From the NCBI GenBank assembly GCA_026392155.1, contig JAPLCP010000054.1:24026-88025 (forward strand): a stretch of 64,000 nt of DNA. Reading direction: 5' to 3'. Numbering within the stretch: position 1 is the stretch's first letter; each line of letters begins with the position of its first letter. This document shows positions 35,601 to 56,750 of the stretch, piece after piece. The notes under the pieces are model-generated. The model saw only the letters and a list, made by a program, of their open reading frames with translations, was not told the DNA's origin and did not search any database. This stretch comes from Armatimonadota bacterium (GTDB lineage Bacteria; Armatimonadota; Armatimonadia; Armatimonadales; Armatimonadaceae). Both the position numbers and the translations under genes were made by a program.

Positions 35601-38217
35601 TTATGATTACAGCTTTGCCTCGGGATTGCTCACCAGCACCCAGGAAGGCAGCAAGCCCCCCGTTACGTTTAGCTACCTACCTAATGGCCTGCTTCAGGGC
35701 GTGACCTACCCAGCCCCACACGGTAGCGGCGCGACCACCTGCACGATTGGCTCCACCTACACGACCAAGGGGAACTTGGCGAGCATCAGCGGGCCGGGCA
35801 ACAATGCCGCCGCCGCACAGACTGTCACGTTTGGCTACACCCAGGATGGCACCTACTCGCAGCCTGAGGCACTGGCCCGGCCTTTGACGATTACGGATGC
35901 CAATGGCAACGCCTCACACATGCGCTATGATTCACGCGGCAATGTGACCAGTGCCTGGGATGCGCTGGGCAATAAGACCGACAGCGAGTACAACGTGGCA
36001 GGGCAAGTGACAAGAACCTGGCTCCCCGCCGCCACTTCCGGTGCCGCCCGTGGCTCTGTGACCAACGATTACCGTTATCCCAGTGGGGTACAAAGCCGGA
36101 CACGGGTCTGGCCAGCGGGTGGTGGGGGCGCTGCCTCTGACTCACAGTTCACGCACTACCCCAATGGTCTTCCCAGTGGTACTAACAATAATGGTATGCA
36201 GTATCCTTGGGGAACCAAAGATGCCGCCTGCCGTGTCACCGATATTCCCGACCCCAACGGCAACAACACGGACTTGGGCTACGACGACGACGGCTTCCCC
36301 AACGAAATCAGCTACCCTGGTGGCAACCTGGATGGGGATAAGACGACCTTCGGTGGCTACAACAACGCGGGCCAGCTTACGACCCGCACGGACGGCAACG
36401 GGAAAGTGGCGAACTTTACATACGCCGATCCCGAGGGTAAACTAACCGCTGTGAGCTTCCCCGCCTCGCCCGCCGACAACGTCTCGATGACCTACGATAG
36501 CTTCGGTCGCCCGGCAAGCCGCACGGACAAGAGCGGGACGCAAACCTTCACGTACGGGAACTTGGACGAAGTGACCAGCGTGACGACCCAGTACGTCGGG
36601 CTTCCTCCCCAAACTATCAGCTACACCTACCACCCCGACGGCAGCCGCAAAACCATGACCACGCCCGCCGGGACATTTACTTATAATTACGACGCAGGCG
36701 GTCGGCCCACCAGCATGACCAACCCGTTTGGCGAGACCACCACCTGGACGTACCAGGCAAACGACCTGCTTGCCACCCAGACAAGCCACAACGGACTCAC
36801 GGCGGCTTACAGCTTCAATGGTCTCGGGCAACTGACCGCTTTAACCAACACCATCGGCGGCAGTGCGGTTGCCACGTTCAATAACATGACCTACGATGCT
36901 GTCGGAAACCGCTTAACCCTCGCCGCCACCATCCCGATTGCCACAGCGCTTTCCGGTACGACGACGTATGGGTACGATTCCCAGTTCCGCTTGACCGGCG
37001 AGAGCACGACGCGAGCGGGCGGCGCAGTCAATGTGTTCTCGTATGACAACGCAGGCAACCCGACGGTCTTCAAAGGGCAGTCAAGAAGCTACAACGCCAA
37101 GAACCAGCACAACGCCAGTGGCTTCGTCTACGACAAGAACGGCAACCCCACCACCTACAACGGCACGACAATTGTTTACGATGTCTTCGACAACCCCACC
37201 CAGTTTGGCAATGTGTTGAGCTGTGGCTATACTAGCGAAGGCTTGCGAGCCTGGAAACAGCCTACGAATGGCACCAAACGCTACTTCCTCTATGATAGTG
37301 TGATTCCTATTTGTGAACTCGATGTAAGCGGCAATGTAATAGCGACAAATAGCATGGGGGCCAAGGGGCTTGTCTCTCGTCAGGAATCTGGCACTGGCTC
37401 GGTGTTCTACGGCTTCGATGAGCGCGGAGGGACTACAGTCAGAACAAGTGCAAGTGGTGCGGCACTGAGCGTTCATGGTCAAGATGGCTATGGCACTTTA
37501 CTGGCTGGCATATATGGCTCTGCCGACCCGTATTCTGGCATGGGAGCACAGTGGGGATACTACAGCGAGCCTGAGACAGGCTTCCAACTTTGTACATTTC
37601 GCTACTATGACCAAGCAGGCGGGAAATGGGTAAATAGAGACCCTATAGGATATATGGGAGGCATAAACTTATATGGCTATTGTGAGGGGAATCCAATAAA
37701 TAAGAAGGATACATTGGGATGGTGCAGTGATAAACGTCATGATGATCCAAACTGCCCTGAGGATCTTTATGTTCTTCCATTTAATACCAAAGGGCGTATA
37801 CAAGGCCCTGGGGAAGTAATTGGTGGGATTATTGGTGCTGTACTGGGTGCCCCATTAGGTGGACTAATACTTGGAGTACCATTTGGAGCACTTGGCGTGT
37901 TCATCGGTACGCCATTTGGTCCTTGGGGCCAAATTGGATTTGGATTACTTGGTATAGCCTTCGCTGAATTTATTGGTGGAGCAATTGGAAGTGGTATCGG
38001 ATCTGGTATCGGATCTGCAATTGGCTCTCTAATTGAGGATTTGATTGAGTCATGGCGCCGTGGACACGGGAAAATGTCACCATGTGACCGGAAATGGGCA
38101 ATTCAGCATATGAAAGATGCCTTTGATCAAAGTGGTTGGGAAGGTCTTTTTGGTGGATTATTTGGTGGTTGGATTTTGGGGAGACTAAAACCGTTAGAGA
38201 AGTTGTTCACTAAATGA
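32647..38217 (+). CDS. Large RHS-repeat protein with Tat signal, C39-peptidase-like domain and glycine-zipper C-terminal tip
   Basis: 1856 residues from a GTG with GGAGG seven bases upstream. Residues 11-42 form a Tat signal (SSRREFLQKAALVGAGLAVP). Residues ~60-180 are TPR-like helices. Residues ~195-330 resemble peptidase C39, with Cys203 (DPICGAAAL), His278 (RDHFVACLH) and Asp296 as a plausible triad. A Cys-rich linker and a YGGGGGYGGGYGGGG stretch lead into YD/RHS repeats up to ~1600. The RHS core is GGKWVNRDPIGYMGGINLYG, with KDTLGW where DPxG is usual. The 164-residue tip is AT-rich and holds a long glycine-zipper hydrophobic region (~1719-1800). Likely a secreted polymorphic toxin or surface protein. 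Confidence 0.85.
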   Translation: MEEMQSRGAQKRSSRREFLQKAALVGAGLAVPVFTAEEALAQTKPSQPVVPLHYGSSLWDEVGRLRQPVSEKQVTAWRDELRKRSLPKERTALLRLWLGEWELDAGRAPIKAREHFEKALKLAKPGETLHGWARYNAAVACFFEGKYAAAAKEFHTLLRDKKERGFSRQATALWARHVGACAAEHAALGDMGIPRPREVDPICGAAALAFCMRQLRMPITKKETLSKVAYTGRGSTMQDLLDACPKLGLSGHVIKADSEALKLFKGKVPMVAWVERDHFVACLHADEDGVHYSCSDCGMWPGGVNAITWKQWQAMRPGVYLAVAKPGSEEDKLLSHLTAPRNSSLAVPGVKVAMEAGSGQVIQSAIQLSSLYRSLAPHVVGFTMLMGVECGLSPMALQCLVAPWGPGCPDIGGPCGNCGEPLEGVEANAANGQVDVPAPSRLDVPNPNGPSVDFGPSYNSLRGPDTMYWNNDFGQSWTHDYKISVYDGSAVPPVPAPTGQVRQGNPTPNQVPITGAVAPANSSVTWEVYKGTTLVADSSQPQGWTLQMGFSYGGGGGYGGGYGGGGSNSTTMSVAAPVDAPTGNDYSARYHGVVYPQGIATKSGSFQVVSHGISPSTAPRYLVMPNGARVGFSASSVPSATNPTVGCAVSTGLPYKIDLCYDPNNTGGYYKITLPDGTRWTTQGISQVDTIYGYSGTAYALHYVLGAITDKVGNSITMTYARFNNGLGVSTPPVLTSIKDASTNTALLTLGRNGQGEIISASDNTGRTVHYEIQTYLTGGYVHPSVRGLTKVSQVVPTGTPAASAPMRSQYGYSQVQNGIYAYGGYETTPQLTSITVPSPTGTGTATGTIEYEDGTCYVKKLTGADGASVEFQQVNADGTPWDPYGNYQSGSYGGASLFTKVITKASNGAVMTSQTIGFDSNMNQTEIKTATGKVLSTSVYGDPTTPYRPTATIDGMGRTWSMTYDDMGNVLTRTTPRGVVTTYTYDYSFASGLLTSTQEGSKPPVTFSYLPNGLLQGVTYPAPHGSGATTCTIGSTYTTKGNLASISGPGNNAAAAQTVTFGYTQDGTYSQPEALARPLTITDANGNASHMRYDSRGNVTSAWDALGNKTDSEYNVAGQVTRTWLPAATSGAARGSVTNDYRYPSGVQSRTRVWPAGGGGAASDSQFTHYPNGLPSGTNNNGMQYPWGTKDAACRVTDIPDPNGNNTDLGYDDDGFPNEISYPGGNLDGDKTTFGGYNNAGQLTTRTDGNGKVANFTYADPEGKLTAVSFPASPADNVSMTYDSFGRPASRTDKSGTQTFTYGNLDEVTSVTTQYVGLPPQTISYTYHPDGSRKTMTTPAGTFTYNYDAGGRPTSMTNPFGETTTWTYQANDLLATQTSHNGLTAAYSFNGLGQLTALTNTIGGSAVATFNNMTYDAVGNRLTLAATIPIATALSGTTTYGYDSQFRLTGESTTRAGGAVNVFSYDNAGNPTVFKGQSRSYNAKNQHNASGFVYDKNGNPTTYNGTTIVYDVFDNPTQFGNVLSCGYTSEGLRAWKQPTNGTKRYFLYDSVIPICELDVSGNVIATNSMGAKGLVSRQESGTGSVFYGFDERGGTTVRTSASGAALSVHGQDGYGTLLAGIYGSADPYSGMGAQWGYYSEPETGFQLCTFRYYDQAGGKWVNRDPIGYMGGINLYGYCEGNPINKKDTLGWCSDKRHDDPNCPEDLYVLPFNTKGRIQGPGEVIGGIIGAVLGAPLGGLILGVPFGALGVFIGTPFGPWGQIGFGLLGIAFAEFIGGAIGSGIGSGIGSAIGSLIEDLIESWRRGHGKMSPCDRKWAIQHMKDAFDQSGWEGLFGGLFGGWILGRLKPLEKLFTK

Positions 38218-38274
38218 TCTTGATTCGGCTACGGGTATATACCTTGGGGTTTGCTCCGTGACCGCATGGAATGT

Positions 38275-38361
38275 GTGGGCATTTCTTAGAATGCCCACTT
38301 CTCCCAGAGCTTCGGCTCCCAGGCCGAAGTCTTACCAGGGATACCCCGGAGCTTGCTCCGG
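38275..38361 (+). other. Three consecutive hairpins between the RHS gene and the small membrane protein gene
   Basis: Perfect stems: 9 bp at 38275-38298 (GTGGGCATT / AATGCCCAC), 7 bp at 38310-38329 (CTTCGGC / GCCGAAG) and 6 bp at 38346-38361 closed by a CTTG loop (CCGGAG / CTCCGG). None is followed by a T run, so they are unlikely to be simple terminators. They could be a structured RNA, a processing site or a recombination element. Confidence 0.6.
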
Positions 38362-38411
38362 CGAGCGTCATTAGTTCTTGTAATTTATAACAGGAGTGGG
38401 GATAAGGCGAA

Positions 38412-38636
38412 ATGCATAATAAAAAAAATGAAAAATATAAATACTATGTAAAAATAATGATTTTTTCTTTCTTGTTGTCAATTATATTAAATTTAATAAA
38501 AATATTAGTTAGTTTTTTTAATAGAGGGCGTATTTATGATGATGTTGTTTATATATTTTCCGTTAATGTGCCAATAATCGGACTTTTTATTTATTTGATG
38601 TGTATATTTTTGTTAAAAAAGAAAAATGATTATTAG
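38412..38636 (+). CDS. Small AT-rich membrane protein, candidate immunity protein
   Basis: 74 residues with two membrane helices (IMIFSFLLSIILNLIKILVS and IFSVNVPIIGLFIYLMCIFL), a basic N-terminus (HNKKNEKYKYY) and a KKKNDY end. Base composition is extremely A/T-rich compared with everything around, as in recently acquired immunity genes. It lies just downstream of the RHS toxin-like tip, where cognate immunity genes are found, and a membrane immunity protein would suit a pore-forming tip. No family was recognised; function is inferred from position. Confidence 0.6.
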   Translation: MHNKKNEKYKYYVKIMIFSFLLSIILNLIKILVSFFNRGRIYDDVVYIFSVNVPIIGLFIYLMCIFLLKKKNDY

Positions 38637-38649
38637 GTATCATATCCCT

Positions 38650-38826
38650 GCCTCGCCCGCCGACAACGTCTCGATGACCTACGACGGCTTCGGTCGCGTT
38701 GCCAGCCGCACGGACAAAAGCGGGATGCAGACCTTCACGTACGGCAACCTGGACGAAGTGACCAGCGTGACGACCCAGTACGTCGGGCTTCCTGCGCAGA
38801 CCATCAGCTACACCTACCATCCCGAT
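38650..38826 (+). pseudogene. Displaced RHS-repeat fragment
   Basis: 177 bases closely matching 36463-36639 of the RHS gene, including DNVSMTYD, SRTDKSG and TFTYGNLDEVTSVTTQYVGL. It has no start of its own and ends at TYHPD, after which the sequence changes to unrelated DNA and a ychF remnant. The differences from the intact copy show it is a diverged paralogue piece, as expected for a remnant of another RHS gene. Confidence 0.8.
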
Positions 38827-54737: not shown

Positions 54738-55412
54738 GTGAGTGACCAATCTCCCCCTCCCGACGATTTTTCCGACGCTGAGTCTTTTACGCCCCAGATC
54801 CCGCTTCTCGCAACCCTTCCCGAGCCGCTCTACACGATCTGCTATGAGTACGGGACACCGTTTTCTCATGGGCCGATTGGCCAGGAGATCGGATGGGCCT
54901 TCCCCAACGCCGAGCTCGCCGAGAGTGCGATTGAAGCGGCGATTGAGCAAGAGCCCGACTCAGGCGCACTCCATGTTGCCCTCGTCACCCGTGAGGAGCT
55001 CGCCGACCGGTTTCCCGCCGTGCTCTTCTTCGACGAAGACGAAAACATCTGGCTTCATTTGCTTTTGGATCAAGAGCCACTCGAAGACCCCGGCGACACG
55101 CCGCTCCCCGATGAGCCTTATGCCCTGTTTGTCGCGGGCGGTGGCATTGATCGCTATCTGGAAGAGCCGCGTGAGGGCGACTGGGTAGTGCACCATGATG
55201 AAGACGACGATATTGACTATGTTCTCTTTTTCGAGGACTTAGATACCGCCGAGCAGATCCTCGCCGAGTTTATCGAAGCCAGTGGCGATCATGCCGAAGT
55301 CCGCCGCACCCGCGCCGATACCCTCACAGAAGAACAAGGGGTTCGCTACTACCACGCCAGCGGCCACATCGAAGACCTCCCCCGAAAAGAATACCTCCGC
55401 CGCTGCCGCTGA
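54738..55412 (+). CDS. Acidic hypothetical protein
   Basis: 224 residues from the GTG at 54738, chosen because TATACT ends six bases before it and upstream reading has no sense. It is strongly acidic (many Asp/Glu, for example FFDEDENIWLHLLLDQEPLE and HHDEDDDIDYVLFFEDLD). Two similar halves may be present (AELAESAIEAAIEQEPDSGA and LDTAEQILAEFIEASGDHAE), suggesting a duplicated small fold. No membrane segment. Its last 21 bases, including the stop, are the left copy of the direct repeat that brackets the toxin-antitoxin cassette. Confidence 0.72.
   Translation: MSDQSPPPDDFSDAESFTPQIPLLATLPEPLYTICYEYGTPFSHGPIGQEIGWAFPNAELAESAIEAAIEQEPDSGALHVALVTREELADRFPAVLFFDEDENIWLHLLLDQEPLEDPGDTPLPDEPYALFVAGGGIDRYLEEPREGDWVVHHDEDDDIDYVLFFEDLDTAEQILAEFIEASGDHAEVRRTRADTLTEEQGVRYYHASGHIEDLPRKEYLRRCR
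55392..55412. repeat. Left copy of the 21-bp direct repeat bracketing the toxin-antitoxin cassette
   Basis: Identical to 56063-56083 over 21 bases. Here it encodes the terminal YLRRCR and the stop codon of the acidic protein. Confidence 0.85.
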
Positions 55413-55448
55413 GAAGACACGATAAAATAGGCTTTGAGGACGATGCAA

Positions 55449-55634
55449 ATGCCTGAATCAACCAATCTGACTGCGGAACGTGACGCAATAACTCTCCCCG
55501 CTGATCATCCGTTAGCTGCCGTTTTTGGTAAGCGCAAGGATGATCCTATGCTAGAGCGAGTTGCCGATGCTGTGGAGCGTCATCGCCGAAAGCTGCAGCT
55601 ACAAGAGGAAAAAGCAACCGAGCGTGCCAAGTAG
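55449..55634 (+). CDS. Antitoxin-like small protein
   Basis: 61 residues from the ATG at 55449, with GAGGA eight bases upstream; a TAAAAT box at 55423 may be the promoter. Start: MPESTNLTAERDAITLPADH; the end is a charged helix (RHRRKLQLQEEKATERAK). It overlaps the PIN toxin gene by 11 bases, the usual antitoxin-first order. No DNA-binding fold is certain, though the short N-terminal part could be an AbrB- or RHH-like strand. Confidence 0.72.
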   Translation: MPESTNLTAERDAITLPADHPLAAVFGKRKDDPMLERVADAVERHRRKLQLQEEKATERAK

Positions 55635-56061
55635 AGGTTTTCTATTGGATACCAATATGGTTCGCCTGATTCAGGCAGGTAACGCTGCCGTCTTAAGCTA
55701 CCTTGTTGCGATTCCAGCAGATCGTATTTGGTTGAGTTCCATTGCCGCCGAGGAAATTCTCGCTGGCCTTTTGGCGAATATCAACCGTGCTCGAACAAGA
55801 AAGCCTCCCTTCCGTTTAGGAGAAGCCCACTCTGATCTGGCGAAGAACCTGGAAGATCTTCGGTGGTTTTCTATTCTTGCCTACTCCGAAGAAGCCGAGA
55901 CAATCTTCCAAGACTTTTCTCCCGCATCTAAGCGCACCGGTTCGCAGGACTGCCGAATCGCCGCTCAGGCTCTTTCCGAAAACTTGGTTGTAGTGACACG
56001 CAATCTTACGGACTTTGAGACCATCGGTGTTGCCTGTGTAGACTGGTCAAGGTCTGAATGA
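55624..56061 (+). CDS. PIN-domain toxin (VapC-like ribonuclease)
   Basis: 145 residues from the GTG at 55624. PIN acids: Asp9 in FLLDTNMVRL, Glu44 in IAAEEILAG, Asp109 in GSQDCRIAAQAL and Asp130 in TRNLTDFETI. VapC toxins cleave tRNA or rRNA in an Mg-dependent manner when the antitoxin is lost. The stop overlaps the next start (ATGA). Both cassette genes look less GC-rich than their neighbours and lie between perfect 21-bp repeats. Confidence 0.88.
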   Translation: MPSRGFLLDTNMVRLIQAGNAAVLSYLVAIPADRIWLSSIAAEEILAGLLANINRARTRKPPFRLGEAHSDLAKNLEDLRWFSILAYSEEAETIFQDFSPASKRTGSQDCRIAAQALSENLVVVTRNLTDFETIGVACVDWSRSE

Positions 56062-56750
56062 GTACCTCCGCCGCTGCCGCTGACTCCCCGATGCGCCGCT
56101 ACGGGGCGTTTGGTTTACTGGCACTTGCGTGTGGTTATCTGGCGTGGCGAGATCAGAGCGTGCTTTGGGGCTGGCTGGCGTTTAGTTTCCTAGCGGTCTG
56201 CGCGGCGTACTTCAAAGCCGGGCCGAGGCTTTTTGGCAAGCGTTTGGACGGTTCTACTGCTCTTTCGGCGCTCCTTCTCTGGCTCCCGTATTTTTTGCTA
56301 ACGTGGGGCATCTGGTACCTGGCTCGTCTCGTTAAACGTAAACCACACGCCCATGAGATCGTCCCCGATCTCTGGCTCGGAGCTTGGCCCAATACGGCGA
56401 AGCGGCTCCCACCAAACACGGCGCTCATCGTAGACCTCACCGCAGAGTTCCCACGAAAAGCCAAAGTTGGGGAGTATCTCTGTCTGCCCACGCTCGACGC
56501 CGACGCACCCACGCCCGAAGCGCTACAAACCGCTATCGCCGCTATCCAAGCCTCCTCTGGCCCCGTCTATGTCCACTGCGCCGCCGGGCATGGCCGCTCT
56601 GCCACGATAGTTGCTGCTGTCTTAATTACACGCGGACTCGCCAGAGATGCAGACGAAGCGGAAGCCCAAATGCAGAAAATTCGACCTGGTGTACGCCTCA
56701 CGCCACCCCAGCGCCGCTTGCTCTTTCATTCTTTCCCATCTGTCCCATGA
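56058..56750 (+). CDS. Membrane-anchored dual-specificity phosphatase-like protein
   Basis: 230 residues. Three hydrophobic helices in the first 90 residues (FGLLALACGYLAW, WGWLAFSFLAVCAAYF, ALLLWLPYFLLTWGIWYL), then a DSP/PTP-like domain: VPDLWLGAWPNTA, ALIVDLTAEFP, and the P-loop HCAAGHGRSAT with Cys174 and Arg180 (CX5R). Asp147/149 is the likely general acid. The first ten residues come from the right copy of the direct repeat; the original start was probably the ATG at 56091. Confidence 0.83.
   Translation: MSTSAAAADSPMRRYGAFGLLALACGYLAWRDQSVLWGWLAFSFLAVCAAYFKAGPRLFGKRLDGSTALSALLLWLPYFLLTWGIWYLARLVKRKPHAHEIVPDLWLGAWPNTAKRLPPNTALIVDLTAEFPRKAKVGEYLCLPTLDADAPTPEALQTAIAAIQASSGPVYVHCAAGHGRSATIVAAVLITRGLARDADEAEAQMQKIRPGVRLTPPQRRLLFHSFPSVP
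56063..56083. repeat. Right copy of the 21-bp direct repeat bracketing the toxin-antitoxin cassette
   Basis: Identical to 55392-55412. It lies 671 bases from the left copy and now encodes STSAAAAD of the phosphatase N-terminus. Confidence 0.85.

What the first reader, a model, noticed from the sequence alone, without database searches (positions are those of the whole stretch)
55392..56083. Perfect 21-bp direct repeat brackets a 671-bp toxin-antitoxin insertion
Seen: 55392-55412 and 56063-56083 are identical. The left copy holds the natural end of the acidic gene (YLRRCR and stop); the right copy is read as the N-terminus STSAAAAD of the phosphatase. Removing one repeat plus the cassette restores acidic gene stop, CTCCCCG, then ATG at 56091. 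Inferred: the PIN cassette moved in as a unit with duplication of the target, adding a fused 5' extension to the phosphatase and coupling it by ATGA to the toxin. No transposase is present, so the mechanism is unclear.
Basis: partly seen in the sequence, partly recalled or inferred. Interest (0 to 1): 0.78.

Follow-up and report, generated by a model that had tools for sequence, protein, structure and literature searches.

The report
Toxin-antitoxin insertion duplicating a gene overlap
A 644-base, likely toxin-antitoxin gene pair sits between two copies of a 27-base stretch that was likely once a single stretch shared by two overlapping genes, so its insertion would have left both neighbours whole; in related bacteria a minority of similar pairs also sit between repeats, often copies of a neighbour's gene end, which suggests that such modules likely move with long target duplications and without a transposase of their own.

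Summary
The repeat is real: 21 identical bases (27 with two mismatches), 671 bp apart, found nowhere else in the held assembly. Between the copies lie 644 bp of lower-GC DNA with a small VapB-like antitoxin and a PIN/VapC-like toxin.

One part is likely wrong: the phosphatase N-terminus STSAAAAD is not an insertion-made extension. Four relatives (76-97% identical) start this way, and the same DNA can encode the conserved EYLRRCR end of the acidic gene in another frame. The target was likely a 26-bp gene overlap.

The pattern recurs in the order. Flanking repeats (blastn E<=1e-4) occur at 24 of 119 PIN places, 6 of 26 ParE places and 0 of 86 acetyltransferase controls; 13 and 5 remain after removal by eye of dispersed, tandem or ill-fitting repeats. 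A fabF-end cassette has a DNA-level empty site in a sister species. Lengths vary (22-138 nt), with no inverted ends in 11 inserts tested. [quoted passage not shown] The window's own empty site and the mechanism are unproven.

The parts
54738..55412 (+). acidic-protein gene (GTG start inferred), 224 aa, ends YLRRCR-stop inside the left repeat copy
   Evidence: conserved C-terminus in relatives; no Pfam family over its cut-off and no NCBIfam match
55386..55412 (+). left copy of the duplicated target (perfect part 55392-55412)
55413..56056 (+). inserted cassette, 644 nt, GC 0.506 against 0.585 for the window
   Evidence: only the antitoxin and toxin frames of 40 aa or more lie within it on the coding strand; no terminal inverted repeat above the shuffle range
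55443..55634 (+). VapB-like antitoxin, 63 aa (ATG 55443; TTG 55434 or ATG 55449 possible), no Pfam, NCBIfam or PADLOC match
   Evidence: an HPLA..FG..DDP-like pattern is shared, by eye, with proteins before some other VapC toxins
55624..56061 (+). PIN-domain VapC-like toxin, 145 aa from GTG 55624 (start inferred from relatives); its stop codon lies in the right repeat copy
   Evidence: Pfam PIN 1.9e-5, VapC models below their cut-offs, best PDB match Ribonuclease VapC 6nkl, E 1.2e-4
56057..56083 (+). right copy of the duplicated target (perfect part 56063-56083); reads NEYLRRCR-stop in the acidic frame and MSTSAAAAD in the phosphatase frame
56058..56750 (+). dual-specificity-phosphatase-like gene, 230 aa, with hydrophobic N-terminal stretches (by eye); its ATG lies in the right copy
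   Evidence: DSPc 1.2e-9 and related models over their cut-offs; N-terminus shared with four relatives

Best explanation
A two-gene, VapBC-like toxin-antitoxin cassette likely inserted, without any transposase of its own, into a 26-bp out-of-frame overlap between two genes and duplicated that overlap, so that both genes would have kept their coding sequence. Shown: the repeat, the cassette between its copies, the double-coding capacity of the repeat, the same N-terminus in four relatives, the enrichment of such repeats around toxin-antitoxin-type cassettes of the order over one control family, and a DNA-level empty site for one sister cassette. Inferred: the ancestral overlap at this exact locus, and the route. 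The route I think most likely is illegitimate capture of the cassette DNA during repair of a broken or stalled target whose two ends overlapped by tens of bases (staggered ends filled in, or template switching). After that, selection would keep only insertions whose duplication rebuilds the damaged gene ends, and addiction to the antitoxin would help to keep the cassette.
For: Repeat and uniqueness. Native C-terminus EYLRRCR. MSTS-type N-terminus in four relatives: of 120 listed phosphatases only these four fit double coding, and of 39,323 nine-residue windows in all 207 proteins held only their four N-termini do; A5V (P0092) and A7V (P0089) are silent in the acidic frame (codon reading). P0071 (acidic) and P0092 (phosphatase) are each listed with one contig, of 4,674 nt, and none of 65 VapC relatives is listed with that length. 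Keeping one copy restores both frames. Insert GC 0.506 against 0.585. Generality: exact shared words of 17 nt or more at PIN 18 of 123, ParE 3 of 28, acetyltransferase 0 of 87 (Fisher PIN against control 6e-5); blastn E<=1e-4 at 24 of 119, 6 of 26, 0 of 86 (Fisher 8e-7); after removal by eye 13 of 119 against 0 of 86, Fisher 0.0008. Empty site: G013 has the fabF end once at the site, running straight into the downstream flank, where G016 has 761 nt between two 56-nt copies. The glmS site is also without cassette in G013. Two flanked cassettes (L144, L175) lie in a genome held as one contig, G014, so assembly error is not a general explanation.
Against: No DNA of an empty site at this locus; the ancestral overlap rests on proteins and on contig lengths. 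P0066, 98% identical to the acidic protein, ends RKEYLRRCR, and a Lys codon there gives no start codon in the phosphatase frame; so its organism either also has two copies or lacks the overlap. P0091 and P0093 start MEAPADSP and MDAPADSP and do not fit the overlap. 95 of 119 PIN places show no such repeat at E<=1e-4. The control is one family of single genes; at the looser E<=0.01 it has 7 of 86 weak matches, against 28 of 119 PIN and 7 of 26 ParE. An accessory, non-toxin family was not tested, so the link to toxin-antitoxin genes in particular is not established. The removal of 11 PIN rows was by eye and not blind. At the glmS site the sister species has about 35 extra intergenic bases. Ku is absent from the genome, so Ku-type end joining is not available there now. 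The repair route was not observed.
Confidence: 0.74

Rival explanations
1. Site-specific integration: the repeats are attL/attR of an integrase that targets gene ends, as tRNA-type islands do, with the integrase acting from elsewhere.
For: Several copies are ends of conserved genes, for example the 3' ends of fabF, glmS, a yifB-like gene and pyruvate phosphate dikinase, which is classic for islands (general knowledge).
Against: Among the 13 curated loci the repeats differ in sequence and length (22-138 aligned nt). The 16-mers that a repeat shares with other held loci lie in part in other species' copies of the same site or gene (L309, L312, L323 and others); a few further matches (for example L012, L078, L084) were not followed up, and the dispersed L150 had been dropped for this reason. 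No integrase lies in the window's insert; whole genomes were not searched for recombinases.
Confidence: 0.11
2. Homologous re-integration: an excised circle (cassette plus one repeat copy) from another lineage recombined with the same gene end here, so the two copies come from two lineages.
For: Copies differ by 5-18% at the 13 curated loci, and in some coding copies many differences fall at third codon positions (my reading, not counted by script). The insertion before the SMC gene is present in both G013 and G016.
Against: It does not explain how the first insertion at each site arose. Third-position differences are also expected if the intact copy stays under selection.
Confidence: 0.12
3. 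One reading: the phosphatase originally began at ATG 56091 and the insertion created a new N-terminus.
For: Removing one repeat and the cassette leaves ATG 56091 seven bases after the acidic stop. P0094 and P0095, 69% and 63% identical, begin at that residue.
Against: Four closer relatives begin MSTS(A/V)A(A/V)AD(S/F)P, fully double-codable with EYLRRCR-stop.
Confidence: 0.08
4. Leftover of an insertion-sequence or composite-transposon event whose transposase was lost.
For: A restriction-modification plasmid moved with IS copies in E. coli (PMC3031569, passages).
Against: No terminal inverted match above the shuffle range in 11 of 11 inserts tested, of 13 curated; duplications longer than the 4-10 bp which that paper gives for IS5 and IS1.
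Confidence: 0.04

Closest known systems
Insertion with long and variable target duplication (restriction-modification genes, first in Helicobacter pylori; Nobusato et al. 2000, not read: known here from citing passages, and recall)
   Same: Addictive gene unit, direct repeats of locus-specific sequence and variable length, tens to about 100 bp, no transposase in the unit
   Different: Cargo is a toxin-antitoxin-type pair in Armatimonadota; here the duplicated segment is likely a gene overlap and both copies still code; occurrence is compared with a control gene family
ParDE-like pair of Microcystis aeruginosa between 152-bp direct repeats (PMC7935541, passages)
   Same: Type II pair bracketed by direct repeats downstream of a gene
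   Different: Those repeats are 152 bp, contain a 16-bp inverted repeat and lie outside the genes; the passages seen do not call them a target duplication
VapBC type II toxin-antitoxin
   Same: PIN-domain toxin preceded by a small overlapping gene
   Different: NCBIfam VapC models are below their cut-offs; the antitoxin has no family match; activity untested
Integron gene cassettes
   Same: Small gene units between direct repeats
   Different: attC repeats resemble each other between cassettes (general knowledge); these repeats mostly do not

Membership tests
Insertion with long target duplication | direct repeats of tens of bp or more flank the unit | tested here: met
   27 nt here; 22-138 aligned nt at the other 12 curated PIN loci
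Insertion with long target duplication | repeat length and sequence vary between loci | tested here: met
Insertion with long target duplication | relative without the unit has one copy | tested here: inconclusive
   met for the fabF site, and for the glmS site apart from about 35 extra bases; at the window locus only protein evidence
Insertion with long target duplication | known cargo is a restriction-modification unit | tested here: not met
   cargo is a PIN protein and a small partner
VapBC toxin-antitoxin | PIN domain in the toxin | tested here: met
   PF01850 25.7 bits, cut-off 23.6
VapBC toxin-antitoxin | match to a curated VapC family over its cut-off | tested here: not met
   best NCBIfam VapC model 38.6 bits against cut-off 140
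VapBC toxin-antitoxin | toxic alone and neutralised by the partner | not testable with these tools
   none
DNA transposon or MITE | terminal inverted repeats | tested here: not met
   longest inverted match of the 40-nt ends within the shuffle range in 11 of 11 inserts tested, the window's included
DNA transposon or MITE | fixed short target duplication | tested here: not met
   22-138 aligned nt
Integrase island | shared att core between insertions | tested here: not met
   for the window's repeat the only other held locus with a shared 16-mer is L027, the same gene in G001; no gapped or motif search for a core was run
Integron cassette | attC site common to cassettes | tested here: inconclusive
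   no 16-mer shared with the attC-like repeats of L140; no dedicated attC search was run

The most novel reading that the evidence does not exclude
Minimal toxin-antitoxin pairs are mobile units in their own right: a dedicated, still unknown process inserts them at gene ends with long duplications, and at this locus it resolved an out-of-frame gene overlap into two separate, both intact genes, with the host target supplying the toxin's stop codon.
Probability: 0.3. Interest if true: 0.85.

Novelty: new variant of a known kind. Interest (0 to 1): 0.67.

Why it matters
How chromosomal toxin-antitoxin pairs spread when no mobile element carries them is an open question. Here a scar is visible: locus-specific duplications, many of them gene ends, against 0 of 86 in a control family, with an empty site for a sister cassette. 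That makes the question testable, since target, insert boundaries and age can be read for many loci. It also suggests why compact genomes could tolerate such insertions, because the duplication would rebuild the damaged gene ends, and a way in which overlapping genes can be pulled apart without loss.

Tried and rejected
Other copies of the cassette in the genome: no second full copy (one partial match, 69% over 120 bases of the toxin, otherwise matches of 16-26 bases); of the repeat: none. The nearest toxin paralogue is 51% identical and shows no long flanking repeat (longest shared word 9). Acidic gene in genome contigs: two scans, nothing confirmed. VapC in viral contigs: nothing. Only 12 genomes of the family are held; in the 61 genomes searched only the window's own has matches to both the acidic protein and the phosphatase. 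Ku-dependent end joining: Ku not found in the window's genome. Terminal inverted repeats: none in 11 inserts. Defence families: none.

Rows dropped before counts: of 136 PIN matches (table) 17 with frames of 385 aa or more were left out and 4 places added, giving 123; 4 lacked enough flank, giving 119. Acetyltransferase: 87 places used of the 531 matches summed from the table (27 of 30 ready loci, 3 near contig ends left out; 60 more chosen by me from the listing, mostly by frame size), 86 after the flank filter. ParE: 28 of 34 (4 without a ready locus and 2 with stops inside left out), 26 after the filter. From the 24 PIN rows with E<=1e-4 I removed 11 by eye, knowing the result: L140 (attC-like), L147 (repeat inside genes, loose geometry), L166 (palindromic; not shown to be dispersed), L067, L115, L148 twice and L150 (palindromic or shared with other loci), L179 (tandem toxin copies), L181 (geometry does not fit a target duplication) and L050 (broken frame). 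From the 6 ParE rows I removed L228 (tandem copy). My first control, 700 of 1076 frames of the same loci, gave 29 with shared words of 17 nt or more; many are the same cassette repeats seen through overlapping frames, some are not (for example L182, L077, L135, L136), so I replaced it by the acetyltransferase control. One search compared fewer loci and is superseded. The rows were rebuilt because some loci were in the wrong orientation.

Full report
What is there. The match extends left to 27 nt with two differences, AAAGAA against AATGAG. Between the copies lie 644 nt of GC 0.506; the window as a whole is 0.585, and 6% of its 644-nt windows are as low. On the coding strand the insert holds a 63-aa protein without family match and a 145-aa PIN-domain protein. 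The PIN protein resembles VapC in NCBIfam (below cut-off) and in the PDB. The small protein shares an HPLA..FG..DDP-like pattern (my reading) with proteins before some other VapC toxins. Of 26 toxin relatives aligned, 18 end in DWS plus one or two residues, others run on longer; this one reads DWSRSE and stops in a TGA that belongs to the right repeat copy, so the insert boundary likely lies in or just after the last codons of the toxin.

What the target was. All eight acidic-gene relatives read in full end in EYLRRCR, and all 21 alignment rows end in it or a close variant, so the left copy is the native 3' end. Close relatives of the phosphatase say otherwise: P0088, P0089, P0090 and P0092 begin MSTSAAAADFP, MSTSAAVADSP, MSTSAAAADSP and MSTSVAAADSP. 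A stretch NTG AGT ACC TCC GCC GCT GCC GCT GAC codes this N-terminus in one frame and EYLRRCR-stop in the other. Of the 120 phosphatases listed (of 320 found) these four fit the double coding, and of 39,323 nine-residue windows in the 207 proteins held only their N-termini do. The two substitutions, A5V and A7V, are silent in the acidic frame. P0071 and P0092 are each listed with a single contig, of 4,674 nt, and none of the 65 VapC relatives is listed with that length, which fits an overlapping, empty site there; it is indirect, since only the longest contig of a cluster is shown. Keeping one copy and dropping the cassette gives ...PRNEYLRRCR-stop and MSTSAAAADSPMRRYG from the same 26-base overlap. 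Against this, P0066 (98%) ends RKEYLRRCR, which cannot supply the start codon, and P0091 (78%) and P0093 (73%) start differently. The ancestral overlap is therefore likely, not proven.

Is it a one-off? A first look at VapC loci showed two more cassettes with long flanking repeats. I then took PIN places from 19 genomes of the order (18 with matches) and compared 600 nt before with 400 nt after each toxin frame. Exact shared words of 17 nt or more occur at 18 of 123 PIN places, 3 of 28 ParE places and 0 of 87 acetyltransferase places of the same set of genomes. With blastn at E<=1e-4, in slightly wider windows, the counts are 24 of 119, 6 of 26 and 0 of 86 (Fisher 8e-7 for PIN against control); at E<=0.01 they are 28, 7 and 7. 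After removing dispersed, tandem and ill-fitting repeats by eye, 13 PIN and 5 ParE places remain (Fisher 0.0008 and 0.0005 against the control). At the 13 places the copies are 82-95% identical over 22-138 aligned nt, and the right copy starts from 5 nt before to 103 nt after the toxin stop, median 24, within 20 nt at 6 of 13. Many copies are gene ends (names by NCBIfam): the 3' ends of fabF (L177), glmS (L185), a yifB-type ATPase gene (L144), an SDR oxidoreductase gene on the other strand (L128, models below cut-off), a response-regulator-like gene (L173, below cut-off) and, nearly to its stop, pyruvate phosphate dikinase (L175, piece of the gene); the 5' end of smc (L165); and, for a ParE pair, the 5' end of nuoG (L246). 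For the other curated loci I did not identify a gene end. L144 and L175 lie in a genome held as one 7.6-Mb contig (G014), so assembly error is not a general explanation. What this does not show is whether the scar is special to toxin-antitoxin genes: no accessory, non-toxin family was tested.

Empty sites. Five joined flanks were searched in five genomes. At the fabF site G013 has the stretch once and runs on into ATCGGATATTTATCAGGTCGGC, the downstream sequence of G016, while G016 has 761 nt between two copies; the left flank aligns up to the end of the left copy, the right flank from the second base of the right copy, and the two alignments overlap on the single copy. That copy matches the left one at 50 and the right one at 48 of 55 places, the two G016 copies each other at 52 of 56. 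At the glmS site G013 also lacks the cassette, but has about 35 extra intergenic bases. At the smc site G013 and G016 share the insertion, and in G016 only parts of the toxin still align and no PIN match was reported. At the dikinase site G018 lacks the PIN cassette but has a ParE-type toxin further on. The yifB-type site (L144) gave matches to the gene part alone.

How it likely works. Repeats of different sequence and length, no inverted ends in 11 of 11 inserts tested and no enzyme other than the PIN protein in the window's insert fit neither a classic transposase nor a site-specific integrase; recombinases elsewhere in the genome were not searched for. I favour capture of the cassette during repair of a target whose ends overlapped by tens of bases. 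Ku is absent from this genome, so filling-in with another ligase, or template switching, would be needed. Selection would then keep those events in which the duplicated stretch rebuilds the gene ends; at this locus the repeat spans the 26-bp overlap from ATG to TGA plus one base, which is what that selection predicts. These steps are inference.

What is known. One review says that some restriction-modification systems can insert with long and variable target duplications of the order of 100 bp (PMC3874152, passage); two research papers and a software paper repeat or illustrate it (PMC3031569, PMC4978471, PMC1643837, passages). The original paper (Nobusato et al. 2000) was not read, and Furuta et al. 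2010 is not held. A ParDE-like pair of Microcystis between 152-bp direct repeats is reported (PMC7935541, passages). PMC2654758 (passages) says that restriction-modification systems share the apparent mobility of toxin-antitoxin systems and cites Nobusato. I found no report of long target duplications as a general feature of toxin-antitoxin pairs, nor of one that splits a gene overlap, in the listings; most subscription papers are outside that library.

Verdict. The finding is a new variant of a known kind, and its wider pattern is the more interesting result.

Noticed in passing
L140 (G016:C132:6100-10586): Repeats like GTCTAACAATGCGCTGCACC around a broken PIN frame look, by eye, like integron attC sites, so this order may also carry toxin genes in integron cassettes.
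   Followed up: no
G014:C1 near 7,425,985 (L175) and G018:C729 (L237, L309): Downstream of pyruvate phosphate dikinase one species has a PIN pair with a duplicated gene end, the other a ParE-type toxin: a possible hotspot.
   Followed up: partly
L165 (G013:C148) and L323/L327/L331 (G016:C226): The insertion before smc is shared by two species and only parts of the toxin still align in one, so such insertions may outlive their toxin.
   Followed up: partly
L094 (G001:C3:89251) and L069 (G000:C128:34871): In both genus members a PIN toxin sits just before the same gene (MTPEDALL...); in G001 the toxin stop and that gene's start overlap as ATGA.
   Followed up: no
window 36463-38803: Exact direct repeats of 44, 35 and 17 bp, all at 2187-bp spacing, suggest an imperfect tandem duplication.
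   Followed up: no
L067 (G000:C139:1000-6500): Two PIN frames on opposite strands lie within 1 kb; a repeat with AGCGGGCTTTAGCC beside one of them shares 16-mers with another contig (C45) of the genome.
   Followed up: no
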